Source: Cylindrotheca closterium (taxonomy: Eukaryota; Bacillariophyta; Bacillariophyceae; Bacillariales; Bacillariaceae). From it: 64,000 nt of DNA. Within the stretch, counting starts at the first letter, position 1, and each line of letters opens with the position of its first letter. Positions 6,977 to 21,570 of the stretch are shown in pieces. Made by a program: the position numbers and the translations under genes. The DNA is taken from assembly GCA_933822405.4 (NCBI GenBank), contig CAKOGP040001112.1:285793-349792 (forward strand), given 5' to 3'. The notes beneath the pieces were generated by a model that searched no databases, was not told where the DNA came from, and saw nothing but the letters and a program-made list of their open reading frames with translations.

Positions 6977-8440
6977 ATGGTTCGGAAAAGTCCATTTGGA
7001 TACTTGGGGCTCTTCTCCTTTGTTGCATTCTTCTTTTTTTGCAGTTCCTGGAACTGGGGCAATAATTACAGTGCTTTATCTGAATACAGGAAAACATCCA
7101 ACAGACTGGCATCTTCGGAGTCAGAAAAGTCCTTTGACGACGAAGAAAATGAGCTTTCCAGGGAGTTTAATTCATCTGAACACAACGATTCATCACCATT
7201 ATCACACCATGCTAACAACCAAAGCGTTTCCAAGATCGAAGATTCCACAAATTTGAACAAAACAGCATTATTGTCATCACATCAGGCTAACAACCAAAGC
7301 CTTTCCAAGAAAAATATCTATTACATCAATGGAACGTATGCTGTTTTGAACCCGTGGTATGGCTGGCAACCAGAAATACATCCAATGGATTGTTCCTGGC
7401 AATTTTGTATGATGGATAATCACACATCCAAGACTTGTCGCGATTCGATGGAGGACATGGCGGTATCAAACAGCTCCTCCATCGATCCTGGGGAAGATTG
7501 GATCCCTGATGTCACCATGTTGCGTCGAATGTTTTTGGACGGCTACGATGCCAATGGGCACCTTTGGCCCCCTCAATTGGAGGACGAACTGTGCCATGCG
7601 CTTGGCAAAAACACTAGTACCAAGAAATTGCTAGACGAGGCAAAGATAGTTGGGGCGCCGATTTCCAGAATGCCAGAAAAAAAGAACAACAAAATTCTGT
7701 GCTTTACTTATACCATGGAGAAGAATCATGCCACCTCGATTCGAGCAATGCGAGAAACCTGGGCACCAGGCTGTGATGGTTTCCTTGCCTTCTCGACAAA
7801 GTCTGATCCTCGCATACCTGCAATTAGTATTCCGCATAAAGGACGGGAAGGTTACAGAAACATGTGGCAAAAGGTTCGAAGCATGTTCCAATTCGTTGGA
7901 AAACACTACCTATCGCAGTTTGATTGGTTCTACATTGGCGGCGATGATCTTGTGGTCTTCCCTCAAAACTTGAAAAAGTATCTTGGAACCTACAATTCTA
8001 GCCAACCCTTCTATTTGGGAAGACGCTTCAAAAGGGGGGCAGAGATTGGCTACAACACTGGAGGTGCTGGCTATGTCCTCTCGCGACCTGCCCTGCAGTG
8101 CTTACTCGAACACTTGGAAGACAAAAGTTGCGAGCCGAAGAAGAAAACATCCTCTGAGGATGCCAAGACAGCAACTTGTTTGAGACTTGCCTGTAATATC
8201 ACTTACGAGGACACACGAGACGACCAAAAGCGGGAGCGGTTTCATCACTGGAGCGCTGAACGCGAGTATGAGTACGATGGCAAATCGAAGTTTTGGAATG
8301 GGTTGAACAAAGATTGGGGACTCTTGTTGGGGAAAGACAGTTGCTCGCCCGAAACTGTCAACTTTCATTATATCAAGAACCCAGGATTGGCCCGGTACCT
8401 TTTCCACTATGTCCAAGGTGGCTGTGTCCGAAGTGAATGA
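6977..8440 (+). CDS. GT31 glycosyltransferase, core-1 beta-1,3-galactosyltransferase-like (type II membrane)
   Basis: A 487-residue single-exon gene. A short cytosolic start is followed by one membrane span (residues about 8-24, LGLFSFVAFFFFCSSW) and a Ser/Asn-rich stem, as in Golgi type II enzymes. The catalytic part shows the C1GALT pattern: ILCFTYTMEKNH, AMRETWAPGCDGFLAFS, DWFYIGGDD (near 315, DxD-like metal/donor site), NTGGAGYVLSRPAL (near 360), SEDAKTATCLR and DTRDDQKRERFHHW (near 411). The family adds Gal or GlcNAc to glycoproteins in the Golgi; exact donor and acceptor cannot be told from sequence. Several N-glycosylation sequons lie in the stem. Confidence 0.85.
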   Translation: MVRKSPFGYLGLFSFVAFFFFCSSWNWGNNYSALSEYRKTSNRLASSESEKSFDDEENELSREFNSSEHNDSSPLSHHANNQSVSKIEDSTNLNKTALLSSHQANNQSLSKKNIYYINGTYAVLNPWYGWQPEIHPMDCSWQFCMMDNHTSKTCRDSMEDMAVSNSSSIDPGEDWIPDVTMLRRMFLDGYDANGHLWPPQLEDELCHALGKNTSTKKLLDEAKIVGAPISRMPEKKNNKILCFTYTMEKNHATSIRAMRETWAPGCDGFLAFSTKSDPRIPAISIPHKGREGYRNMWQKVRSMFQFVGKHYLSQFDWFYIGGDDLVVFPQNLKKYLGTYNSSQPFYLGRRFKRGAEIGYNTGGAGYVLSRPALQCLLEHLEDKSCEPKKKTSSEDAKTATCLRLACNITYEDTRDDQKRERFHHWSAEREYEYDGKSKFWNGLNKDWGLLLGKDSCSPETVNFHYIKNPGLARYLFHYVQGGCVRSE

Positions 8441-9032
8441 TTTACTGAAAAGACGGATGGTTGTGGGACCCAGAATCAGTAAAGGATATCTATTCTCCAT
8501 ACTACTTGCAGCGGACCCAAGGAAGCTGTCATGCTCTGTCGGACTGAAGCGTGGTCAGCTGCGTCAATCAATTGATAATCGCCTGGAGCCATGAGTATCA
8601 GATCGAAAGGTATAGGTATCCTGCCGCCTGAGATAGGACTGCAAAGTCACTCATCGCATCATCTCACGTCCTTCGCAGTAGTGATAGCCGAACTTACTAT
8701 GTTTTTAATACGAACGCTATCGATAGTAATATGAGCTATAATCTTCTGCATTTCGGCCATTTGTATCCTGAACATACACGACTGTTTCGACCAAACAAAT
8801 TTGAAAATGGGGTTCATAAAAGTCTCTCCCCGACCACTATTTTTTAAAATATTTGTACTCGTAGACCCAAAAATGCGGCAATAATAATCGAGGACGAGTT
8901 TCTAAATTATGAGAGAAAGGCAACAACCACAACAACAACGTCAAGCGTTTCTCCTTCCAACACTGCAGAATACGCAGCACAGACATGTTGTAGCAAGGTT
9001 TCACAACTACATTGTGCACCCTCTTTGTCGAT
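8441..9032. other. Intergenic, 5' region of the RAD51-like gene
   Basis: About 590 nt. From about 8920 onward it is the 5' UTR or proximal promoter of the RAD51-like gene and is the part copied at 6380. Nothing else recognisable. Confidence 0.5.
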
Positions 9033-10400
9033 ATGCCAACCTTTGAATCCATTCCATTGCATCCCGTGCTCAAGCAACGGCTGTTGGAGCCACCGAATCC
9101 AGGTGGTGTGAGCATTTCCACACCTCAAGCCCTGCTGTCAAGAACGCCTCAAGCGCTGGCCGATCAAATCTTGTTGACAAAATCATCCAAAGATGGAAGC
9201 AAGGCTAGTAACAACATTGGCGACCAAGCCACTATGAAACAAATTGATACCCTCCGAAGTCAAGTCGCACATGTCATGATGGCACAAACAAGGATGGGAA
9301 AATACCGCCTCCAGCAACAACAGCTGTACGATGACAGCACGGTACAATACGACACCAAAAACGGTACTGAGCATTACTATGCCACGCGACCTCTCGTATT
9401 GGGGGCGACTGTTAGTGCAATGCAAGCATGGCAACAAGAACAGGAGCGAAAAGGACCGATCACCAATCTTTCCACCGGTTGCCGTGCCTTGGATGAGTTG
9501 CTTTCCCTTCCAGCAGAGTATTCAAATCCTCACCCTTATGCTCTTCAACAAGAGCAAAATGGTCAGCCGCAACAGCATCCTCATCATAGTGCAATGCTGG
9601 GTTTTCCACGAGGACATCTTTTATCTTTTTCGGGTCATTCCGGATCGGGTAAATCCCAATGGTGCCTACAACTTGCGGCCCAAGCCTTGCGACAGCCATG
9701 GATCCAGCAGTTCCCTACGGCTCGAGTTCGATATTGCTACAGTGGCGCCGGTCACGATGGCAATGCCTTGGCCCAACGTCTGTCCCAACTGCTCCAACAT
9801 CAAGTATCACCAATGTCGCCTTCTTCTCCTTTCTCTTCAGGTGCTTTGGAAAAGGTCGAATATCAGCCTATTCGTACTACGACACAATTGGTAGCGATAT
9901 TGCAAGCGTTGGAAGACGAACTATTAGAAGCATCCTCGTATGGCACCCGTAGTACTACAACAGCGGGCACCACTTTTCCGACACACAATGCAAACCAAGG
10001 AGGAGGGATGATCTTACACCACCAACCTCCATTTGTGCTCGTTGTCGATTCCTTGTCCAACCTGGAAGTCCAGGGTGACCCATCTCAAATGTCTCGCCTC
10101 CTTCGTACTTTGAAACGATTGGCACGGCAATATTCCCTGTGGGTGGTAGTGACTCTTTCCGAACACCACCACAAGGGCAACAAGAATGCACCAGCGACCA
10201 ACCTACCCGGTGATTATCACGTGCTGTGCCAATCCATGACTGTCACTGCACCTCCACCAACACCCGAAACTTCCGCTATTACCACCACAACAACCATTCA
10301 GGCGACTCTGTGGAAACATCCCGCCAAACTGGACCAACCGTCCATTACGCTCTTTCATACACCATCGGGAATGTCCACAAGGGCTTCCCCTACCATGTAA
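9033..10400 (+). CDS. RAD51/RecA-like ATPase (recombination paralogue)
   Basis: A 455-residue single-exon protein. ATG at 9033 (MPTFESIPLHPVLKQRLLEP) is chosen; the upstream open frame has no ATG. RecA-fold features: ITNLSTGCRALDELLSLP, as before the core of RAD51 paralogues; Walker A GHSGSGKS near residue 200; Walker B FVLVVDSLSNLEV near 334; then a LARQYSLWVVVT strand. An expanded Gln/His-rich insert precedes Walker A, and Ser/Thr-rich loops interrupt the core. RAD51 paralogues help load or stabilise RAD51 on single-stranded DNA in homologous recombination. I cannot say which paralogue (RAD51B/C/D, XRCC2/3) it is. A broken copy of its 5' end lies upstream at 6380. Confidence 0.75.
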   Translation: MPTFESIPLHPVLKQRLLEPPNPGGVSISTPQALLSRTPQALADQILLTKSSKDGSKASNNIGDQATMKQIDTLRSQVAHVMMAQTRMGKYRLQQQQLYDDSTVQYDTKNGTEHYYATRPLVLGATVSAMQAWQQEQERKGPITNLSTGCRALDELLSLPAEYSNPHPYALQQEQNGQPQQHPHHSAMLGFPRGHLLSFSGHSGSGKSQWCLQLAAQALRQPWIQQFPTARVRYCYSGAGHDGNALAQRLSQLLQHQVSPMSPSSPFSSGALEKVEYQPIRTTTQLVAILQALEDELLEASSYGTRSTTTAGTTFPTHNANQGGGMILHHQPPFVLVVDSLSNLEVQGDPSQMSRLLRTLKRLARQYSLWVVVTLSEHHHKGNKNAPATNLPGDYHVLCQSMTVTAPPPTPETSAITTTTTIQATLWKHPAKLDQPSITLFHTPSGMSTRASPTM

Positions 10401-10701
10401 AATAGGTTGCAATTCATGTAGATAGGTAGCAAAAAAAGGCAATTATAGACACACAATATAAAACATGCAAAAGAGAAGAACCATCATAAAAATAGTTCAT
10501 CCTTTCGAGAGAATACACCAATCACATTGAAACCATTTCGGATCTATTTTATTGCATATTGTACTGGTACTCATTCTTCATACGATCCTAGTAGATTCGA
10601 TTTGAAAGTAATCATTCCTCAACAAATAATTGCGATGTTACAGTAAAGAGAGAATATTACAGTAGATACCCAATAAATACTACTGGCCAGTCCAGATCCT
10701 T
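10401..10701. other. Intergenic between convergent genes
   Basis: AT-rich 3' flank shared by the RAD51-like gene and the CaaX protein gene. Several AATAAA-like words occur (for example near 10671). No gene seen. Confidence 0.5.
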
Positions 10702-10914
10702 CTACGAAATCACACAACAATGGTGTGTGACTGTCCCGGTATCTTCCACATATCTCCTTTTGGTTTTTCGTTTTCGTACTCTTCTGGTGCGCCCATCTGC
10801 AGTCTTTTCTTCTTTATACTCGACGTCTTCGTCGACGCTAGTCACCACCCAGTCATGTTGGGGTCCTTTCTTATCGAATTGTTTGGGACCATTTTCATCG
10901 TCGTTTTCCGCCAT
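10702..10914 (-). CDS. Small protein with a CaaX prenylation box
   Basis: A 70-residue protein, MAENDDENGPKQF at the start. The C-terminus is HHCCVIS, a good CaaX box (CVIS, predicted farnesylation) with an adjacent Cys that could be palmitoylated. A strongly basic stretch (RTRRVRKRKTKRR, residues about 42-54) lies upstream, as in Ras-type polybasic membrane anchors. The first half is acidic (SVDEDVEYKEEKT). There is no enzyme fold; it is probably a peripheral membrane adaptor or regulator. I do not recognise the family. The frame is intact from a clean ATG, but the short length leaves doubt. Confidence 0.55.
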   Translation of the reverse strand: MAENDDENGPKQFDKKGPQHDWVVTSVDEDVEYKEEKTADGRTRRVRKRKTKRRYVEDTGTVTHHCCVIS

Positions 10915-11401
10915 GTTGATCCTGTTGTTTCAGGAGTGTTGATGTCTTCTGGCTTGGGGCGAATGCGGCAAAGAGAGGAAGCCGGTTGTTATTGTGTTTT
11001 CAATTTCCTTTTATATCCACACTTTGTTTTAAGAGTGTGTAGCAAGCAAAACGGGTGCGTATTGAGGATGATTTTTTGAAGTGATATCGATGCTCATCCA
11101 ATGCCAAATGCCACCCCCTTTTTTAGCGTCTAATCCAACGGAAAAAAAGGCCTACTGTATGCATCGTTGCGCAAAATCGCGCTCTGCGGTATTTCAGTCT
11201 CGTCGACGACAACTGACGACTCCTCTGACTGAATTACAAAGTTTAGGCCTGACGACGGACGAGCATCGTGTCTTTTGACGACGAAACACATCAACAAAGC
11301 AATAAACCAGATTCAAAACTCTCTTGTGGACATTAATGATCCACCATAACCGTAATAATCACAAACAATGTTGTCAGAATAGGATTTTTTTCCTTTTTAC
11401 G
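10915..11401. other. Intergenic, divergent promoter region
   Basis: Lies between the CaaX gene (minus) and the flavoprotein gene (plus). No gene seen. An in-frame ATG at 11336 could extend the flavoprotein by 22 residues. Confidence 0.45.
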
Positions 11402-13036
11402 ATGTGTTTATCGATTGCTTCGCCATCCTTCTATTCCAGAAAGTGTGCCTTCTTTGTTCGAGCACTATCGACATCGAGCAACAAACATGCTGATAAAAAG
11501 AAGATTGCCGTGATTGGAGGAGGAGCGTAAGTAGGAGGTGGACAAACAGTCATGTATTTATGCCATGTGTTCAAATGGTCATTCACTTACCACCTTTCTC
11601 CATCTCAAAAGGTCTGGTATATTTGCTTCCATTGCTGCTGCAGAACATTCACATACACAAGTCACAGTTCTTGAAGCGACTGGCAAAACTTTGCAAAAGG
11701 TGAAGATATCTGGTGGAGGGAGGTGTAATGTTATGCACGACACGGACAAGTCCATTCAAACGATTTTGGGATCGTATCCTCGTGGGAGTAAGGAGTTGAA
11801 TGGTGCCTATCGCAAGCGATTTACTCCAGCAATGGCCAGAGACTGGTTCGAGTATCGTGGCGTAGAACTGAAAACGGAAGCCGATGGACGCATGTTTCCC
11901 ACAACAGACTCGTCGCAGACTATACTAGATACGTTGATGAACGCGGCCGAAGAGGAAGGTGTCGAAATCCGAACCAAACAAAAAGTGGCCTCCATCACTC
12001 CTTATGACAATGGCTTTCTAGTTGGTTGGAAGGATGCCGAAGAACCTCCCGAGGAATTTGAAGCTATCATATTGGCTACTGGGTCGGCACCAGTCGGGTA
12101 TGGTCTGGCAAAAAGTTTGGGGCATGACTTGGTACAACCTGCCCCGTCGTTATTCACGTTGAATTGCAAACATGCCATCAAAGAAGATGGGTTGCTTTAC
12201 GGTCTCTCAGGCATATCTGTTCCCACCGCACGCATTACTCTCTCCATGACAACTATATCTGGTGGAGAAACTAATAACATCAGCGATCCAAGCAAGAAAG
12301 TAAAGAAGAAGAAAAAGACGACAAAGCTGCAGCAAGAAGGCCCACTTCTAATAACACATCACGGATTATCAGGGCCTGCAGCTTTGAGGTTGTCAGCTTT
12401 TGCCGCCCGTGAGTTCCAAGAAATCAACTACCGAACCCATATCACTGTCCATTGGGATACTGGTATCGGATCGAATGCTGAAGAAGTTTTTGAGAAACTG
12501 TGGCAGGTGACATCTAGCAATCCGAAGCGTACGGTCTCCAGCCTTTGCCCAATACCCAACAATCAAATCCCTCGTCGACTTTGGTCAGCTCTGGTGGAAT
12601 ATAGTGGGTTGGGCTCAAATGACAGCAACCCAAATGGTATTCTGTGGGGAGGTGCCCCGAAGAAGCTGGTTCGAAAGTTGGCCACGAACCTAGTAGCATG
12701 CCCCCTTGAAGTGACAGGGAAAGGGACTTTCAAGGAGGAGTTTGTAACTGCCGGCGGAGTTTCACTGGAAGAATTGGAAATGAAAACTATGGAATCCAAG
12801 AAATGGTATGTCCAACATGTCGCGAATCAAGCATTAGGGCTATTTGTTTGTGCTGAACAAAGTCTCATGCATCTCCTTCGGTTGCGTTGCTCTTCACTGG
12901 CAGTCCTGGGGTTTTCCTGTGCGGTGAATTGATAAATGTTGACGGTGTGACCGGTGGATTTAACTTTATGAACTGCTGGGCCACGGGATTCATGGCTGGC
13001 CACAGTTCGGCAGACTATGTACACTCATCACAGTGA
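11402..13036 (+). CDS. HI0933/BaiN-family FAD-dependent flavoprotein
   Basis: Three exons: 11402-11526, 11612-12805 and 12904-13036 (483 residues). Intron 1 splits the dinucleotide-binding motif, which rejoins as [15 protein letters not shown]; intron 2 rejoins to [28 protein letters not shown], the conserved C-terminal FAD/GG motif. Also present are [10 protein letters not shown], the hallmark of the HI0933 family, and [18 protein letters not shown] Lys-rich insert ([11 protein letters not shown]) precedes this. The family is a Rossmann-type oxidoreductase of poorly defined substrate. The N-terminus ([20 protein letters not shown]) looks like an organelle presequence; an alternative ATG at 11336 would lengthen it. 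Confidence 0.85.
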
Positions 13037-13175
13037 ACTTAGCAAAAATTCCGAGCCTTGGGAAAAAACTATTTTGTTGATAGTCGAAACCGCACTGCCA
13101 TCTACCCTTGCAAGCTCGTTCTGAATGCTCTGAGTAAATCTTTCAGTTGAAGTCGACACTAGTGCTACGTAACAT

Positions 13176-15608
13176 TTAGTACCGTCGTCTCTTTTTCTTT
13201 TGGTTCTTATCTTGGCCGTTTCGGTTTTTTTTCGTCGATCCATTCGGTTTTCCATCCTTTTTTGTTTCTCTTGCACGAAGCTGAAATAAAGACCGCATCC
13301 GTCGAGTTGCTGAGATGTATATGCTGTCCTCGCTATCTTTGATTTCACCGTACTTAGAAACAACCCACCCATATACAACCTTTGTCTCGTCCTTCTTCCA
13401 TCCATAACCGCTCTCGGGAGTCACTAAGTGCAACTTTTCGTCCGCTTCAAAGTCTTCTTGATTCGTATATTCCCTGACCGAGCCGAACTCGCACCATCCA
13501 ATCACTCTTGGGCCAATCGAATTGGAGCCTGATATATCAATCACATCACTCATGCTGCTTACTCCAGCCTTGCCTGCTGGTGACTGAAGGATCATGATGC
13601 GCTTCCCAATCAAAGCTAGGGGCAGTGTGTACGCCCTCGTTTCGATAGGCTTCTTTCCTTGGACTACAGCCAGGGCCCACGGTTCTTGTAATTCGAGACA
13701 AAAGTTGGATGTTGCCCAACCTTCCCAGTCCAATCCCTTGGCATGGTCGTTCGACTCCTTTGTGCTTTCGCTGTCTTGGTTTTCTTCTGGCTTTGGTAGG
13801 TCGCTCGCTTTTCGAGGCAGATAGGCACGTCCAGCTACTCGCAGGTCTTCGCTGATCTGTTTCAAACCATTCGGCGTGCCATCTATTGGGGACATTCCAT
13901 ATTCATCGACTTGTTTCGTCCCTTCTGGAACATTGAATTGGAACGGCACATCCATCGGCCGACACTCAGGTCCGAGTTCTCGAAACACATGATCCTTTTC
14001 CCGCTTTTGCCAAAGTTCTCTCATCACAGCTCGTTCGTTTATTACCTCCGCAAGAGGCTCGTAGATGTTCTCCAGAGCGCTATGCTCATCCAACGAGCTC
14101 CGCGTCAACAAATCTTCAATGCACGCCAATGCTTTCTTTCGGCGTTCCTTTGCTTTCCGCTCTTTTCTCGAAGGTTTGTCGTCATTTCTATCGGAATAAG
14201 TTCCAACTCCACACCTTTCTTCCGCTGCTGCTTTCAAGAGAGTTACGACTTGACGTGTTCGATTCTCCAAAAGGGTCCAAAATCGGAGCAGCTTCTGCAT
14301 TGGTTCCTTCCATGCCTATGGTAGTTTGATGATACAGGTGTGAGTTCAATATGTTTTGTCAGCAAGAAGTAAGATTCAACAGAGACTTACAGGCCAAAGG
14401 AGTTCGAGATGTTGGGAGCCTTGAATGTAGAACTGACGGATCCATTCCGACTCCAGCTCAGTCAACAACAGTTGTTCCGATCTCCAAAGCTTGCTTCCCT
14501 TCTTGTGGAAATTGCTACATGTTGTTTGACATCGAAGCAAGTGATAATCCACATTATGAGAATCTCGGAGTAATCGAAAGGTGCAAGAATAGCGAACTCC
14601 AGCCGAAGCGATGTCTCCAGTAGTTAGTACAGTGTGTTGATGGTGATGATTAAAGTCATCCAACAGATAGTATGCAGAACCTGAAGGAAGGGAAGCTGCT
14701 ATGGGAGGTGTCTCCTTGATGATTGATGATTCTATGCCCTTCCCTCGTCTTGAAGCCTGAGGACCCTCCGAGTCGTGGGCCACTCTCAAAGCCACATACC
14801 ACTGGCCATCATTATTTGATGTTGAATTCTTTGGCGGTATCAGTGTTTGGTAGACAGCAATCGTAGAGTATTGCTCCAGCGAGGAGTCAGCATGCCAGCT
14901 AACGGATGCTTTCATATTCCCCATGGTGGGTTCAGGCTTCAGGTCATCGTAGGCTTCCATTCGATTGATGAGACAGATATCAAAGTTGGATCTTCCTCGT
15001 GTTGCCGGGGCATTCCGTTGAGCTCGAAGCTCGCTGAGCTCCTTTAGGTGGTGTTGTGTTCGTTGTGTCAGTTTTGCCCCTAGTTTTTGGATCTCTGTAT
15101 TGTCCCAGGGATGAGCGAACATTCTTAATCCTAGGTATTTATAGGTTGTCCCTTGTTCTCCAAGGACGCACCTTGTGACATATGTCTTGGCACATTTCGT
15201 TCCGAGTCCAAAGGGTTGTGTCACATCCCGTCGAAACAATTTGTCGTCCAGCATCTGCTGAAGATAGTTTTGAGCACGTTGCTCATCATATATCGACTCA
15301 TCAACAACAAAACCTTCATACGATGTCTCTAATGCTTGTCGAAAGGATTCCTTGTACGGCTTCGCATTCTTCAGAAAATCGTCAGATGGTATTGGTAGGT
15401 TCTTTGGAAATGGGAGTGGATATTGGGGATTTGAAGGCTTCGATTCTACACTTTGGAAAGAATGGGGAGGAGTGTTCGCACTCTTGATCTTTGCGGTTGT
15501 TTTGGTGTCTCCTTTCCGTTGTCGTTTCTTTCCCATTGTCGTTTCTGTTGTTGTTCTGTTTGACGACTGGGATGAGTGAATGGTTGGCATTTGACATCGA
15601 AGATCCAT
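13176..15608 (-). CDS. FTO: FTO-type 2-oxoglutarate/Fe(II) dioxygenase fused to an ASCH domain
   Basis: Two exons, 15608-14391 and 14315-13176, joined in phase 0 across a 75-nt intron (GTAAGT...CATAG); 785 residues. Exon 1 carries the FTO catalytic domain: YKYLGLRMFAHPW, SVSWHADSSLEQYSTIAVY (Fe ligands H239, D241), YYLLDDFNHHHQHTVL (H325) and VRYSCTFR (R339, R345, the 2-oxoglutarate pair). Exon 2 continues the FTO-specific helical C-terminal domain: ESEWIRQFYIQG, INERAVMRELWQKR and GPECRPMDVPFQF, up to about residue 565. An ASCH (PUA-fold) domain follows at about 610-740 (LELQEPWALAVVQGKKPIETR), then a Lys/Arg-rich tail suited to nuclear localisation or RNA contact. FTO enzymes remove N6-methyl groups from RNA adenines. 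The ASCH part suggests RNA or modified-base binding (inference). Shares a 322-nt promoter gap with the DUF676 gene. Confidence 0.85.
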
Positions 15609-15930
15609 GTGGTCTACTGAGTCGAAAAATGCATTTTTCCGGGTTCGTTTGTTTCTTTGTTTACGTCATGCACGACATGACACCGCTATTTTAACATTCA
15701 AACTTCAAATTATTTACAGTTGACATCCACGATCTCATCCTCATTTGATTCACATTGTCATTGCAAGTGCCGTTATCCGCTTTTCGCCCTTTGAGAAGTT
15801 GCAGAAAATCGAACTTCGCAACTCTGAAAATAAGCAAATCGAATTCTGCAGTTCAATCTTGCAATAGAATCGTGTCAGCTCTTTTAGTGGATGGGAATAG
15901 GATCAGAACTCATAGCGTTACCGGCGTAGT
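15609..15930. promoter_or_regulatory. Head-to-head promoter gap, FTO-ASCH / DUF676
   Basis: A 322-nt divergent spacer that must hold both promoters and 5' UTRs. No sharply defined element recognised. Confidence 0.4.
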
Positions 15931-17673
15931 ATGCTCTTGAAGGATCTGTTTAACAAATTATTACAATCGCCGCATATCACTGCCTTTCCAAGTATCGAAG
16001 AAATAGGATATTTCGAGTCATTCGTTCGATTCATGATGATCGTTTCCATACTGTGGTTGATTTGCATCAGCTTATCACTCACACTGGGTTCGGCTAATGC
16101 CTTCAGTGGTATGCTTCGACGAAAGCTAGACACTGAAAAATTTAAAGAAATGGCGAACGCAGAGTCGATCCGCAAGTCGTTTCGCTCAACTACAGAATTT
16201 CTTAACGATTTGAACAACGATTTGTCGCCCCCCTTTCAATTGGACCTTCAAGATCCTGACGGGTTGTCAGGTACCGTTCACTCTCCAGATGTGACACACT
16301 TTCTCTTTTTGATGCATGGTCATAGGGGTCAGAGCAAAGATTTGGCGTACATGCACACAGTTATGGAGAGAATTGCTGGAACCAAAAAGAAACGAATGTC
16401 TCGTGTGGCCAGTCCTTCTCGCAGCAAAAACAATAAAATCTCAGGAACGGATTCAGACCCAGTGAAACATGACATGTTAGTCCACAATACCGTGTCCAAT
16501 GAGCACAAGACTGAGGATGGCATCCAGAATGGAGGTGATAGACTAGTGGAAGAAATGCGCCAAGTAATCGAAGGTGAAATGAAGAAACGACACCCTAACT
16601 CCAAAGACGTCTTTGATATCACCATTTCCATTCTTGGAAACTCGTTGGGTGGTCTCTATGGTCGATACGCCATAGCTAAGCTTGTGGAGCGACACTGTAT
16701 CAAAGATGGCAATGGCAAAGGTGGTGATTCCTGTTGGATGTTGGATGGAAGATACAGGTTACACCTCAATGTCTTTTGCACGACAGCGACCCCTCATTTA
16801 GGCGTTTCCAAGCACACATTTCTGCCAATTCCAAGAACTGGCGAAATCGCTGTTGCGACAATCATGAAGGACACTGGAAAGGATCTATTTCGAATGAATG
16901 ATCTGTTGCACAAGATGGCCACGTGTCCGACATATCTTCGGCCACTTGCCAATTTCAGAAAGAGGATCGCCTATGCCAATGCATTCAACACAGACTTCCC
17001 AGTTCCTACTGCCACTGCGGCCTTTCTGAGTGAAAATTCTACTTATCCTCACTATTTTGAGGACGACTCGTTAATTGTGGAACCAGAAAGGACACCGAAA
17101 AGCCAAAGCAGAAAGAGATCACCTGCGAGAGGCAACAGTCCAGAACGGGCCAAGAAAAAGCTGTTTGTTGCCTCTCTATATACACGAACACTGGAGGATA
17201 ACCAAGACGAAAGATCCGATAGCATGCAAACCGATTATGATGGCAAGAAACACAAGGATGAATTCCATCACATGTCGGAATGTCTCGACCAGTTGGGTTG
17301 GAAGAAAGTCTTTATTGACATACGCAGTGAACTCCCCACAGTTGAAATCCCAAAGGGTTTTATCAAGAAGCGGAAAGAATTATCCAAGGAGACCGAAGAC
17401 GAGTCGGCGTCGTCGTCGTCCAGATGCATCCATTCGCTCAAACGGCAACGAACGACATTGTCCTCCAGAGACTTGGCCTCGGCAGTGGCACAGAACAACG
17501 ACAATCGATTCTCTTGGCCACTGGGGCACAATATGATTGTTGCGTTTTCTAGGACTCGCATGAGCACGTTAATGAACAGGGGAGGAAGGCCAGTGGTGGA
17601 TGCCGTTGCCAAAGAACTGGTGGAAGATATCTTTGCCTGGGAGGACGGTGGAAAGAAATCTACCACTCAATAA
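15931..17673 (+). CDS. DUF676-type serine esterase/lipase-like protein
   Basis: A 580-residue single-exon protein. A membrane span or signal anchor lies at residues about 30-56 (FMMIVSILWLICISLSLTLG). The alpha/beta hydrolase start is VTHFLFLMHGHRGQSKDL (oxyanion-side HGH), and the nucleophile elbow is ILGNSLGGLYGRYA (GNSLGG). A FCTTATPHLGV motif follows, typical of the DUF676/ROG1/FAM135 group. A charged insert (RTPKSQSRKRSPARG) lies in the second half. The C-terminal part contains GHNMIVAFSR, a plausible place for the catalytic His. Members are putative lipid esterases; the substrate is unknown. It is probably anchored in an endomembrane. Confidence 0.78.
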   Translation: MLLKDLFNKLLQSPHITAFPSIEEIGYFESFVRFMMIVSILWLICISLSLTLGSANAFSGMLRRKLDTEKFKEMANAESIRKSFRSTTEFLNDLNNDLSPPFQLDLQDPDGLSGTVHSPDVTHFLFLMHGHRGQSKDLAYMHTVMERIAGTKKKRMSRVASPSRSKNNKISGTDSDPVKHDMLVHNTVSNEHKTEDGIQNGGDRLVEEMRQVIEGEMKKRHPNSKDVFDITISILGNSLGGLYGRYAIAKLVERHCIKDGNGKGGDSCWMLDGRYRLHLNVFCTTATPHLGVSKHTFLPIPRTGEIAVATIMKDTGKDLFRMNDLLHKMATCPTYLRPLANFRKRIAYANAFNTDFPVPTATAAFLSENSTYPHYFEDDSLIVEPERTPKSQSRKRSPARGNSPERAKKKLFVASLYTRTLEDNQDERSDSMQTDYDGKKHKDEFHHMSECLDQLGWKKVFIDIRSELPTVEIPKGFIKKRKELSKETEDESASSSSRCIHSLKRQRTTLSSRDLASAVAQNNDNRFSWPLGHNMIVAFSRTRMSTLMNRGGRPVVDAVAKELVEDIFAWEDGGKKSTTQ

Positions 17674-17974
17674 TAATAGCTATGCATGTAAATATAATTT
17701 TTGTAACATCAGGTCTCCGAAGTCCTATACACGTTACTGAATAAGAATAATCTTTCATGATAGTGAGCTACTTCATCATAAGCCTATCTTCACCATACTC
17801 ATTCAATGTGGCAACATTGCGTTTTCTAAAACTCAGAATGAATTTTAAAAGAATTCGTCTGTATTTTGTCCGTCCTTCATTCTTTGGATACGAACCCAAG
17901 ATGTTCTTCATGTCACACATCATCCTCACAACTGACATCATTCATTCATTCATTCAACTGCTTACAATAACAAG
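17674..17974. other. Intergenic, upstream of ribosome recycling factor
   Basis: About 300 nt; contains a short ATTC repeat at 17940-17957 just before the gene. No gene seen. Confidence 0.45.
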
Positions 17975-18985
17975 ATGACAAGTCGACGGCTCATCCTAGA
18001 TACACTTCTAAAGAGAAGACTTTCTGTATTTGAAAACTCTGCCTCTCGTAGCTTGTCTTGCATTGCCAACAATGGTAATTTTGCTTCCAACATTCCAACA
18101 ACTCAGTTGACGTCATCGCCATTGAACCTTGCTTTCCATGGCCCTCAATCAACCATCATTGGTGCCAGAAGATTCAAACACGCGTCCAAAATGGGGCATC
18201 ATCTGGAAACACTTGATGAATTGGCCCACGAACCCGAACGAGAGGCTGCTGAAGAAAAGCGCAAAAAGAAAAAGGAACGAAAGGCAAACAAAAAGAAGGG
18301 CAAAGCGGCTGCACCTGCACAGGAAGAATTAGAAGACGACGACGACGATGATGACTTTGACTTTGATGATGACGAGGACATGGAAGAGGAAGAGGTAATT
18401 GGTGAAGACGGCGAGGTTGAAATCACCCTCCCCGATCCGTCGGATGTCAAGCGACGCATGATGAATGTCGTAGGCAGGTTTGAAGAAGCCTTGAAGAGTA
18501 TCCGAGGTGCCGAACCCTCTCCCGAAATCTTCGACGACTTGATGGTAGATGCGTATGGTTCTATGACTCCACTCAAGGCGATAGGACAAGTTGTCATTGT
18601 CTCACCCACCTTGGCACAAATTACCTGTTTCGATCCAATGATTGCCAAGAACGCGGCCAAAGCCGTTCAACTTGCCTTGGAACTGAATCCACAAGTGGAA
18701 GAGGGGGGCAACATCAAGGTACCACTCCCCCGCATGTCTTTAGAAGTGAGAGAACAAACTGCAAAACAACTCAACAAACGATCAGAAGCCTGCCGTCAAC
18801 GCATTCGTCAAGTCCGTCGCAAGGCAATGGATAAGGTGAAAAAGGGCAAGGATGGAAAGATTCCGGGTGTCTCTAAGGATGACGCCTTTGCTAATGCAAA
18901 AGAAATTGAAAGTGTGACAGAGTCCGCAATGGACTCGCTGAAGAGCTTGGTGGATAAGAAGACGGACTCCATCATGAATGTCTAA
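17975..18985 (+). CDS. MRRF: Mitochondrial ribosome recycling factor
   Basis: A 336-residue protein. The N-terminus is a basic, Ser-rich mitochondrial presequence (MTSRRLILDTLLKRRLSVFE). The RRF domain spans about residues 150-336: KRRMMNVVGRFEEALKSIRG, MTPLKAIGQVVIVSPTLAQI, FDPMIAKNAAKAVQ, IKVPLPRMSLEVREQ and the RRKAMDKVKK region. RRF releases the post-termination ribosome together with EF-G. Unusual here is a highly charged insertion between presequence and domain: a Lys-rich run (EEKRKKKKERKANKKKGKAA) and then an Asp/Glu run (DDDDDDDFDFDDDEDMEEEE), residues about 92-141. A plastid rather than mitochondrial home cannot be excluded, but no ASAFAP motif is present. Confidence 0.88.
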   Translation: MTSRRLILDTLLKRRLSVFENSASRSLSCIANNGNFASNIPTTQLTSSPLNLAFHGPQSTIIGARRFKHASKMGHHLETLDELAHEPEREAAEEKRKKKKERKANKKKGKAAAPAQEELEDDDDDDDFDFDDDEDMEEEEVIGEDGEVEITLPDPSDVKRRMMNVVGRFEEALKSIRGAEPSPEIFDDLMVDAYGSMTPLKAIGQVVIVSPTLAQITCFDPMIAKNAAKAVQLALELNPQVEEGGNIKVPLPRMSLEVREQTAKQLNKRSEACRQRIRQVRRKAMDKVKKGKDGKIPGVSKDDAFANAKEIESVTESAMDSLKSLVDKKTDSIMNV

Positions 18986-19092
18986 GCTACAATCGGAAGA
19001 AACAAATAAAACAATAGCAGTACTAGTCCTAGCATCAAAATTGAGCGCTATCAAATTTAAAAATGACTTTGCAAACGCCCATGAAAGCCATG

Positions 19093-21426
19093 TTATTGGC
19101 GCTTTGGATAGATTTTCTCATAAATTGCAACGCACGTCCACGCATCGAGGGCAGCATATATCCGTTGACTCTCCGAAAGTGGACGAGAGGACCACATGCT
19201 GCACTGTTCTGCCTTGTCCAATGGTTTCCCGAGGTAGTGCTGGGAGACTCGAGCCAGGCCCAATTTGCGAAGCTTGGGCTCCTTTTCTCCAGCTATTCGC
19301 TGAGCATCTACCACGGCTCTAGTCCCCGAAAGCCAATGATTAGTGGAAACACATTTGCTGACTCGAAGCCGTGACAAATCTTGTCGTGGAGAAAAACCCA
19401 CGACCGTTGCCTCCGAGGAATTCATCAAAGCACCTACCGTCTCGGATAAAGCCTTGACTCCTTCTTCGGTCGATGACAAGGCAGGAATGTCAATCAAGAG
19501 CACTTCATTGCGACCAGAAAATTGAAAGAGTCCAGCCCCAATCGTTTCCTCGTCCCACTCGGCATCAATCCCAAAGACAGCATCGTTCCGAATCCGATCA
19601 AAGGCTGTCCGTAACTCTTGTGGTTCCGACAAGAGGTTGGGAATTCCTGCTCCAGCCAAACACTCGTCCCATTGTAGATATCGTTTCCGTCGTTCGGCAG
19701 CAGCAACTAGTATAGCTTCTTCATCGTAGACATAATCCATGGACCATAGCGATGCCAATCGATGTGCAGCGACGCCTTCACCTGCCTCGGTAAGTTTGTT
19801 CAAGGCAAACCTTCTGATTTGCTTGCGAGCAGAATCTGTTTCATCTGACAACAACAGTACTTGCTGTTCATCGAGTACTACTTGCTCGTCATTGCTCTCT
19901 TTGGCCATGTCACTCTTTAATTTCTCAACCGCCTTGTCCACTCGATCCACCTGGCGTTCAATAATGGGCAATTGTCGCTTGTAGACGACCTTGGTAATGG
20001 TATCAAAGGCATGATAGAGTCTTGCTTCTACATATTTCGATCGTCCTCCTTGTTCGTACAACTTGGTGGCCATGTTGTCGGCCAATCGAAACAGCCGTGC
20101 ATCCATGGCAGTCTCAATCAAGGCTTCCGTGGCTTTTAGGACTTCCTCCAATCGCTCTTGTTGGTTGTATTGAATGGCTCCTGCAATGGGCACTTGTACA
20201 TTGGAAGAGGCCGCCTTGTAGGCACTGATACAGACTTGTTCGGCTGTATGCCAATAATCCAGTTCAATGGCAATATCAATGAGTGGAACAGGTGACAACA
20301 TGGGCCAAGGTCCCATTTGGCAGGCCAACGCCAGCGCGGAAGAGACTCGTTGTTTTTTCACATCCTCGGAAGCATCATTGGCTGGATCGACAAGAATGGT
20401 AGTGGCTGTGCTACCGTCCTCTACTAAATCATGCCGCAAGGAGTATCGAATGGCATTGGCCGCCAACTCGGAATACTGAGGATCTTGTTCGTGGTTGATC
20501 TTAAAGGCCTTGGCAAAGTGTGTCAAAATAGTAAGATTGATGGTATCGCTACAGCTCGAGTGTACCAAGAATGATTTTAAAACATTGTTGGCGATAATTC
20601 GTCCCTTGTGTCGAAAGTTTTTGTTGCGGGAGGTAGTGGAAGACATGGCGGAAGCAGCTGCCTTTGGGCCACTTTGGGCTTCGTCGTTTTGGTTGTTCTT
20701 GTTCTTGCTCTTTTTGTTGTTGTTGCTGTTGCTACCTGCAGTAGTAGCAGTTTCGGGTGGAAATAAGGAGAGCGCTCCAAAGACCATGGAAACGGCAAGT
20801 GCATTAGCTTCCGAGACATCACTTTGCAAAAATTCAGCGCGTTTCTGCAAGGCTTGCCATCGTTCCTTCTTGTGCAGATTCATATCATTGACAATGTCAC
20901 ACATGGATTCGGCCACCAAAATGGCGTGTTGGGCAAAGCGTCGCTCTGCATTTTGATTGGGTTCCGCAGTAGAGTTTTGTTCCACTTCCATTTCAGTATC
21001 ATCGGTAGAGACAGCTGCAGCAGGAGCAGCAAGGACCGATTGCAAGACATTCAACGCGTTCTGAATGTCTGGTTTGTCCGCGACACAACCGAACAAACCA
21101 AAAAGAGTTTCTTCCATTTGAGCATCATTATCAGCAGTAGTATCACTGGTGGAACGAAAACCGCCGATGGAATCTGTGCTTGTCATATCGAAGAGGCTGT
21201 TGTGAGACGTCAACTTGGTGGCAAACGATGATAAATGCACAGGTCGTGTAGGAGTGTGATATTGAATGACAGTGAGGCAAGTGAGAGAAGGAATTAGACG
21301 AGAGAAGGATAAAAGACTCAGAGCCAGTCTTTGCATGGTCCTGTCAACCAAATGCAAGCGCTGTTGTTGGAGTTGAGACGCGTCAGGGTGTTGAGTGAGC
21401 ATGATGTCGATGAGACTTATTTCCAT
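19093..21426 (-). CDS. EXD3/MUT-7-like 3'-5' exonuclease-domain protein
   Basis: A 777-residue single-exon protein; first ATG at 21426 (MEISLIDIMLTQH). An internal ATG (MQRLALSLLSFSRLIPS) would give a mitochondrial-like start. The C-terminal 180 residues are a DEDDy-type exonuclease fold: FGIDAEWDEE (DxE metal ligands), VVGFSPRQDLSRL and RIYAALDAW (YxxxD). The central part (FAKAFKINHEQDPQY, LALACQMGPWPMLSP) is helical and resembles the repeat-rich N-terminal region of EXD3/MUT-7 proteins. Such enzymes trim small RNAs or other RNA 3' ends. Acidic and low-complexity stretches (Ser/Asn/Lys near residues 245-260) interrupt it. Confidence 0.75.
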   Translation of the reverse strand: MEISLIDIMLTQHPDASQLQQQRLHLVDRTMQRLALSLLSFSRLIPSLTCLTVIQYHTPTRPVHLSSFATKLTSHNSLFDMTSTDSIGGFRSTSDTTADNDAQMEETLFGLFGCVADKPDIQNALNVLQSVLAAPAAAVSTDDTEMEVEQNSTAEPNQNAERRFAQHAILVAESMCDIVNDMNLHKKERWQALQKRAEFLQSDVSEANALAVSMVFGALSLFPPETATTAGSNSNNNKKSKNKNNQNDEAQSGPKAAASAMSSTTSRNKNFRHKGRIIANNVLKSFLVHSSCSDTINLTILTHFAKAFKINHEQDPQYSELAANAIRYSLRHDLVEDGSTATTILVDPANDASEDVKKQRVSSALALACQMGPWPMLSPVPLIDIAIELDYWHTAEQVCISAYKAASSNVQVPIAGAIQYNQQERLEEVLKATEALIETAMDARLFRLADNMATKLYEQGGRSKYVEARLYHAFDTITKVVYKRQLPIIERQVDRVDKAVEKLKSDMAKESNDEQVVLDEQQVLLLSDETDSARKQIRRFALNKLTEAGEGVAAHRLASLWSMDYVYDEEAILVAAAERRKRYLQWDECLAGAGIPNLLSEPQELRTAFDRIRNDAVFGIDAEWDEETIGAGLFQFSGRNEVLLIDIPALSSTEEGVKALSETVGALMNSSEATVVGFSPRQDLSRLRVSKCVSTNHWLSGTRAVVDAQRIAGEKEPKLRKLGLARVSQHYLGKPLDKAEQCSMWSSRPLSESQRIYAALDAWTCVAIYEKIYPKRQ

Positions 21427-21570
21427 GCCCCGCAATCTTTCCCCCTTTTTAAAATATTTTATTAATTAAGACATTGTTTAGCTCCTTCTGAAATTTTCGA
21501 CAAAACGCATCTTCAAATGACAACAACCATGGCCCTATTATTGTACCCTCACTGATTGATATTTCCAACA

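What the first reader, a model, noticed from the sequence alone, without database searches (positions are those of the whole stretch)
13176..15608. FTO-type RNA demethylase fused to an ASCH domain
Seen: two open frames (15608-14391 and 14315-13176) join in phase 0 through a clean 75-nt intron. The first ends inside the FTO helical C-terminal region and the second continues it (ERAVMRELWQKR, GPECRPM...PFQF), so they are one gene. It then carries an ASCH domain and a basic tail. All Fe and 2-oxoglutarate residues are in place. Known: FTO removes N6-methyl groups from RNA adenines and is scattered among vertebrates and algae; ASCH/PUA folds bind RNA or modified bases. Inference: the ASCH part may give the eraser substrate choice. 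I do not recall this fusion being described.
Basis: partly seen in the sequence, partly recalled or inferred. Interest (0 to 1): 0.85.

Follow-up and report, generated by a model that had tools for sequence, protein, structure and literature searches.

The report
Algal FTO demethylase with ASCH domain
A diatom gene for an FTO-type enzyme, which in animals removes methyl marks from RNA, carries an extra ASCH domain that probably holds RNA; the combination is real and widespread in related algae but was already mentioned in print in 2015.

Summary
Window 15536-13176 (minus strand, Cylindrotheca closterium) encodes one FTO protein split by a 75-nt phase-0 intron: FTO catalytic domain, FTO helical domain, ASCH domain, basic tail. 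Pfam does not find ASCH in this protein itself, but the GxKxxExR motif, relatives' profile hits and a confident model matching solved ASCH structures support it. The fusion is in 98 of 138 relatives read, from diatoms to Triparma, Chrysoparadoxa and Ectocarpus.

It is not new as an architecture: Tung et al. 2015 (PMC4354923) state that FTO of several algae has a C-terminal ASCH domain, and used this to find that mammalian FTO binds the ASCH protein TRIP4.

What I add: the position of human purine contact E234 is serine in 134 of 134 relatives with a residue there; no ASCH was found at this genome's TRIP4-like gene; MT-A70 and WTAP genes were not found (weakly controlled), while three PCIF1-type frames keep NPPF.

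Best reading: an RNA N6-methyladenine eraser whose ASCH is a built-in RNA-gripping arm, perhaps acting on cap-adjacent m6Am.

The parts
14391..15536 (-). exon 1 of FTO-ASCH, start codon as in the public protein (the open frame extends to ATG at 15608)
14316..14390 (-). 75-nt phase-0 GT-AG intron
   Evidence: same place and phase in 18 read-through ORFs of relatives
13176..14315 (-). exon 2 of FTO-ASCH, with stop codon
14571..15347 (-). FTO catalytic domain (PF12933, residues 64-322 of P0001); Fe ligands H215, D217, H301; 2OG side N191, Y289, R315, S317, R321
13944..14492 (-). FTO C-terminal helical domain (PF12934, residues 349-506), interrupted by the intron
   Evidence: helices in model
13734..13943 (-). 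linker (residues 507-576), poorly conserved; pLDDT under 50 at residues 560-570
13269..13733 (-). ASCH domain (residues 577-731)
13635..13658 (-). ASCH hallmark GxKxxExR (GKKPIETR, residues 602-609)
   Evidence: pattern in 87 of 91 ASCH-bearing relatives of the first list
13179..13268 (-). low-confidence basic tail ending KKKRRRY (residues 732-761)

Best explanation
A single-copy Fe(II)/2-oxoglutarate demethylase of the FTO family that removes N6-methyl groups from adenines in single-stranded RNA. Its C-terminal ASCH domain is an RNA-gripping arm on a flexible linker that raises affinity and holds the target RNA near the FTO pocket. Shown: one gene, both FTO domains, the ASCH fold (by model), catalytic residues, wide conservation of the fusion. 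Inferred: RNA as substrate, ASCH as RNA-binding arm, nuclear site (basic tail). More speculative: that the main target is cap-adjacent m6Am or snRNA adenine marks rather than METTL3-type internal mRNA m6A, because PCIF1- and METTL16-type genes were found in this genome and MT-A70 and WTAP were not.
For: FTO_NTD 178 bits and FTO_CTD 64.1 bits, cut-offs 27. Full model pLDDT 85.4 matches human FTO (4ie5, E 2.4e-25, target TM 0.73). Positions of H231, D233, Y295, H307, R316, R322, R96 and Y108 never vary among the 130 to 138 of 138 relatives with a residue there. ASCH model (pLDDT 88.9) matches Zymomonas ASCH, TTHA0113, EOLA1/CXorf40A and TRIP4. The linker has low confidence. Zymomonas ASCH binds nucleic acid through its cleft (PMC5615036, passages); human TRIP4 raises the DNA affinity of its helicase partner about tenfold, which its authors attribute to the ASCH domain (PMC10076317, passages). 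Own genome: PCIF1 four hits, three with NPPF; METTL16-type one; YTH one.
Confidence: 0.55

Rival explanations
1. The ASCH domain is a reader of a modified base (YTH-like pocket) that docks the eraser on already marked RNA, giving substrate choice.
For: ASCH shares the PUA-like barrel with YTH and EVE; the EOLA1 authors superpose a YTH-bound methyladenosine into the EOLA1 cavity (PMC6803910, passages). The four motif residues are kept in 88 to 91 of 91 relatives.
Confidence: 0.25
2. The ASCH domain is mainly a protein-docking part that links FTO to the ASCC/TRIP4-type transcription or ribosome-rescue machinery; the fusion stands for the FTO-TRIP4 contact seen in mammals.
For: FTO binds TRIP4 by co-immunoprecipitation and yeast two-hybrid (PMC4354923, passages). 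In this genome the TRIP4-like gene keeps the zinc finger (ASC1 match E 3e-14) but no ASCH was found at its locus, while FTO has one.
Against: FTO contacts (30-48, 249-269) were mapped with full-length TRIP4, so the part played by its ASCH is unknown. TRIP4 is named once in the main text of the 2021 human interactome paper, as earlier in vitro work (PMC8565353, passage).
Confidence: 0.15
3. The ASCH part is itself an enzyme, such as an ssRNA nuclease (ZmASCH) or a modified-nucleoside amidohydrolase (YqfB), coupled to demethylation.
Against: Catalytic residues of either enzyme were not mapped here; identity is 16-17% to ZmASCH and 10% to YqfB.
Confidence: 0.05
4. The enzyme erases N6-methyladenine from DNA rather than RNA.
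For: Human FTO was crystallised with m6dA ssDNA (5zmd title), and human TRIP4 ASCH structures hold dsDNA (titles).
Against: No test of 6mA in this species; no MT-A70-type methyltransferase found (uncontrolled).
Confidence: 0.1

Closest known systems
Algal FTO with C-terminal ASCH domain (Tung et al. 2015, PMC4354923)
   Different: In the passages I saw it takes a sentence in the results, a line in the discussion and a supplementary figure legend; the algae are not named there and the algal protein was not tested. I did not see the figure.
Vertebrate FTO
   Same: Both FTO domains, Fe and 2OG residues, R96 and Y108 equivalents.
   Different: No ASCH in vertebrate FTO (PMC4354923); H232-D233-E234 of human is Ala-Asp-Ser here.
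TRIP4/ASC-1, EOLA1 and bacterial ASCH proteins
   Same: PUA-like ASCH barrel and GxKxxExR motif.
   Different: Stand-alone or joined to a zinc finger, not to a dioxygenase; 16-22% identity over aligned residues.

Membership tests
FTO family | FTO catalytic domain profile (PF12933) above cut-off | tested here: met
   178 bits, cut-off 27
FTO family | FTO C-terminal helical domain profile (PF12934) above cut-off | tested here: met
   64.1 bits in the spliced protein, cut-off 27
FTO family | Fe(II) triad and 2OG-binding Arg | tested here: met
   H215, D217, H301, R315, R321 of P0001 align with H231, D233, H307, R316, R322 (alignment; human numbers recalled and counted; survey)
human-type FTO substrate pocket (a property of human FTO, not one that defines the family) | purine contacts R96 and E234 | tested here: not met
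   R96 kept in 130 of 130, but E234 is Ser in 134 of 134 with a residue; roles from PMC7835257
FTO family | N6-methyladenine demethylation | not testable with these tools
   no assay
ASCH superfamily | GxKxxExR motif in the pocket | tested here: met
   GKKPIETR; pattern in 87 of 91 ASCH-bearing relatives of the first list; motif named in PMC6803910
ASCH superfamily | PUA-like beta-barrel fold | tested here: met
ASCH superfamily | match to the Pfam ASCH profile | tested here: inconclusive
   no hit in this protein nor in its genome; 36 of 57 aligned relatives hit at E up to 0.1; P0003 26.3 bits over cut-off 21.2, while P0131, P0135 and P0137 give no hit
ASCH superfamily | nucleic-acid binding | not testable with these tools
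   reported for ZmASCH and TRIP4

The most novel reading that the evidence does not exclude
Ochrophyte algae that have lost the METTL3/METTL14 writer keep an FTO-ASCH eraser dedicated to cap-adjacent m6Am (or snRNA) marks made by several PCIF1-type enzymes and METTL16. The ASCH domain and an altered purine contact (Glu to Ser) set this target, and the ASCH part has been moved between FTO and TRIP4 in evolution.
Probability: 0.2. Interest if true: 0.7.

Novelty: new member of a known kind. Interest (0 to 1): 0.4.

Why it matters
Which mark FTO mainly serves, m6A or m6Am, is still argued over in mammals (recalled). An algal lineage with a conserved FTO, PCIF1-type genes and, if confirmed, no METTL3/14 would be a natural test. 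The built-in ASCH domain also makes the role of an accessory RNA-binding part in an eraser directly testable by deletion.

Tried and rejected
Separate genes: rejected, because the public protein, relatives with an MMETSP transcript source that carry both parts (P0011, P0045, P0073) and the conserved intron position all fit one gene.

Chance ASCH resemblance: rejected, though by sequence alone it is weak. Pfam finds no ASCH in this protein or in its genome, where even this domain was missed while 6 of 14 control genomes rang. The best solved-structure match of exon 2 is ASC-1 at E 0.49, and the profile of full-length relatives reaches ZmASCH (5y6b) only at E 0.85, behind an unrelated chain at 0.12. 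Motif and fold decided it.

Viral or prokaryotic origin: scans of viral contigs and genome contigs with A1 found no relative. Their peptide patterns came from the FTO part, so they say nothing about ASCH alone. A stand-alone ASCH of this type: nine short proteins found, which look like pieces of the same fusion; the own genome gave only the FTO gene plus one match at E 0.56. The two long searches listed only 120 of 243 and 120 of 249 hits, so green algae, haptophytes and vertebrates were not surveyed here.

Prior-art searches: (FTO with ASCH, with or without diatom or algae). One search listed two papers, neither on the subject by title. One search's only paper was PMC4354923, which is. One search listed 20 of 31, of which by title only PMC4354923 is on the subject. 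Subscription papers and preprints are not in that library. PMC11312118, on writers and erasers in C. closterium, used plant ALKBH erasers as queries; in the passages I saw FTO is only background. PMC12024952 put human FTO into P. tricornutum; it has no 'ASCH' or 'endogenous' in its main text.

Full report
WHAT IS THERE. The window lies in Cylindrotheca closterium: the protein found at 100% identity bears that name, a pennate diatom of the Ochrophyta. On the minus strand two frames join in phase 0 across a 75-nt GT-AG intron (GTAAGT...CATAG, 14390-14316); without splicing the frame stops at the fifth codon. The public protein has the same join and starts at 15536 rather than 15608. A search of the assembly finds one FTO catalytic domain, this one.

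THE SPLICE. Among 47 of 138 relatives examined for it (those not flagged with ASCH), 18 are ORFs that run through the same point, 'LLW' then V[SRC], and stop within 54 residues (19 pattern matches, one false). None of the 98 ASCH-bearing relatives shows the pattern. This fits a conserved intron in the same phase. Relatives P0011, P0045 and P0073 have an MMETSP transcript source, are labelled 'complete' there, and carry FTO and ASCH in one protein. I saw no transcript of C. closterium itself.

FTO PART. Pfam gives FTO_NTD 178 bits and FTO_CTD 64.1 bits, both cut-offs 27, and the CTD match is shared between the exons. The model of P0001 has mean pLDDT 85.4 and pTM 0.70 and matches human FTO at E 2.4e-25, with target TM 0.72-0.78 over the 28 FTO rows. 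By the alignment (human residue numbers recalled and checked by counting), the iron ligands, 2OG residues, R96 and Y108 are kept. Over 138 relatives the positions of H231, D233, Y295, H307, R316, R322, R96, Y108 and N205 never vary where a residue is present (130 to 138 of 138); S318 is Ser in 125 and Ala in 13. The positions of human H232 and E234 are Ala and Ser in all 134 that have residues there. A review reports that R96 and E234 hydrogen-bond the methylated purine and that mutating them abolished activity (PMC7835257, passages; I did not see the original work). Whether the E234 contact is by side chain or backbone I did not establish, so this is a warning about substrate, not a sign of inactivity.

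DISTRIBUTION. Of 120 listed relatives (243 found) 91 carry the segment; of 18 further relatives from a second search (120 listed of 249), seven do: Triparma, Chrysoparadoxa, Phaeothamnion (partial), Ectocarpus, Discosporangium and two unnamed. So 98 of 138. Of the other 40, 18 are cut at the intron and 22 end without ASCH. Of the 22, 18 were placed on a tree of the FTO part (108 proteins of 560 aa or more from the first list; midpoint-rooted, support values not read): 11 form one clade that includes Seminavis, the other seven are scattered. The fusion is thus spread over several ochrophyte classes, with later loss or incomplete gene models; I cannot separate these two. No relative was found in viral contigs or prokaryotic genomes with FTO-derived patterns. 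Groups outside ochrophytes were not reached.

PRIOR ART. Tung et al. 2015 (PMC4354923; [quoted passage not shown] they report FTO-TRIP4 co-immunoprecipitation and yeast two-hybrid binding. Sanchez-Pulido and Andrade-Navarro 2007 had already found FTO in Phaeodactylum and Thalassiosira (PMC2241624, passages). So this gene is a new member of a described kind.

CONTEXT IN THE GENOME. The own genome has one YTH hit, one METTL16-type and four PCIF1-type hits, three with the NPPF motif and one without it in the part held. MT-A70 gave no candidate in two searches, but no control genome rang either; WTAP gave none at E 0.001. A published survey says METTL3-METTL14 was lost in lineages such as heterokonts (PMC8868631, passage), and its homologues were not found in oomycetes (PMC11449341, passages). 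PMC11312118, by contrast, reports that all its plant queries, MTA and MTB among them, mapped to the C. fusiformis genome (passages), which speaks against absence. The TRIP4-like gene (L008:1009-1848) has the C2HC5 zinc finger and matches human ASC1 at E 3e-14, up to ASC1 residue 324. No ASCH was found there: its frame stops at 1848; the frame on the opposite strand at 2280-2867 is COX5B-like (E 7.9e-5, below cut-off); no plus-strand ORF of 60 aa starts between; and the six frames of the 3.1-kb locus give nothing with my ASCH profile, which finds the FTO one at E 3.5e-81. That profile is built from FTO-type ASCH and might miss a TRIP4-type one, and an exon further away is not excluded. So in this diatom the ASCH sits on FTO and, as far as this locus shows, not on TRIP4, the reverse of mammals.

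HOW IT MOST LIKELY WORKS. Inference: the FTO part oxidises an N6-methyl group on adenine in single-stranded RNA; the ASCH part, on a flexible linker, grips RNA and holds it near the pocket. The closest tested precedent is TRIP4, whose presence raises the DNA affinity of its helicase partner about tenfold, an effect the authors attribute to the ASCH domain (PMC10076317, passages). Whether ASCH reads a modified base is open. The choice of m6Am as main substrate rests on the writers found and on abstracts linking FTO and PCIF1 (listing); I give it about 0.2.

THE TAIL. A basic C-terminus ending R-[FY] (at least four K/R in the last eight residues) occurs in 68 of 98 ASCH-bearing relatives, 8 of the 22 without ASCH and none of the 18 cut at the intron, among them Triparma, Ectocarpus and unnamed P0135. 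It is thus kept in part independently of ASCH; a nuclear signal or a docking motif are guesses.

VERDICT. Real, correctly read, functionally suggestive, and already in print as an architecture. Interest is moderate: the value is in the altered pocket residue, the place of ASCH on FTO rather than TRIP4, and the set of writers in this genome.

Noticed in passing
L002:811-2763 (minus strand), own genome contig C157: The only YTH hit in this genome is one frame with CCCH zinc fingers, a YTH domain and a DCD (Dev_Cell_Death) domain; CPSF30-like by layout (recalled).
   Followed up: partly
L004, L005, L006, L007 (own genome): Four PCIF1-type hits; three frames keep NPPF, one (L007) shows none in the part held: an apparent expansion of cap methyltransferase-like genes.
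   Followed up: partly
L008:1009-1848 (own genome): TRIP4-like gene with C2HC5 zinc finger in which no ASCH domain was found.
   Followed up: partly
window 13179-13202: C-terminal basic motif ending R-[FY], kept in 68 of 98 relatives with ASCH and 8 of 22 without; unexplained.
   Followed up: partly
window 6977-21435: Neighbours by Pfam: Fringe-like (6977-8440), AAA domain (9012-10400), HI0933-like flavoprotein (11538-12932), DUF676 esterase (15931-17673), ribosome recycling factor (17975-18985), 3'-5' exonuclease (19093-21435, minus); six frames scanned, none an RNA-modification enzyme by name.
   Followed up: no
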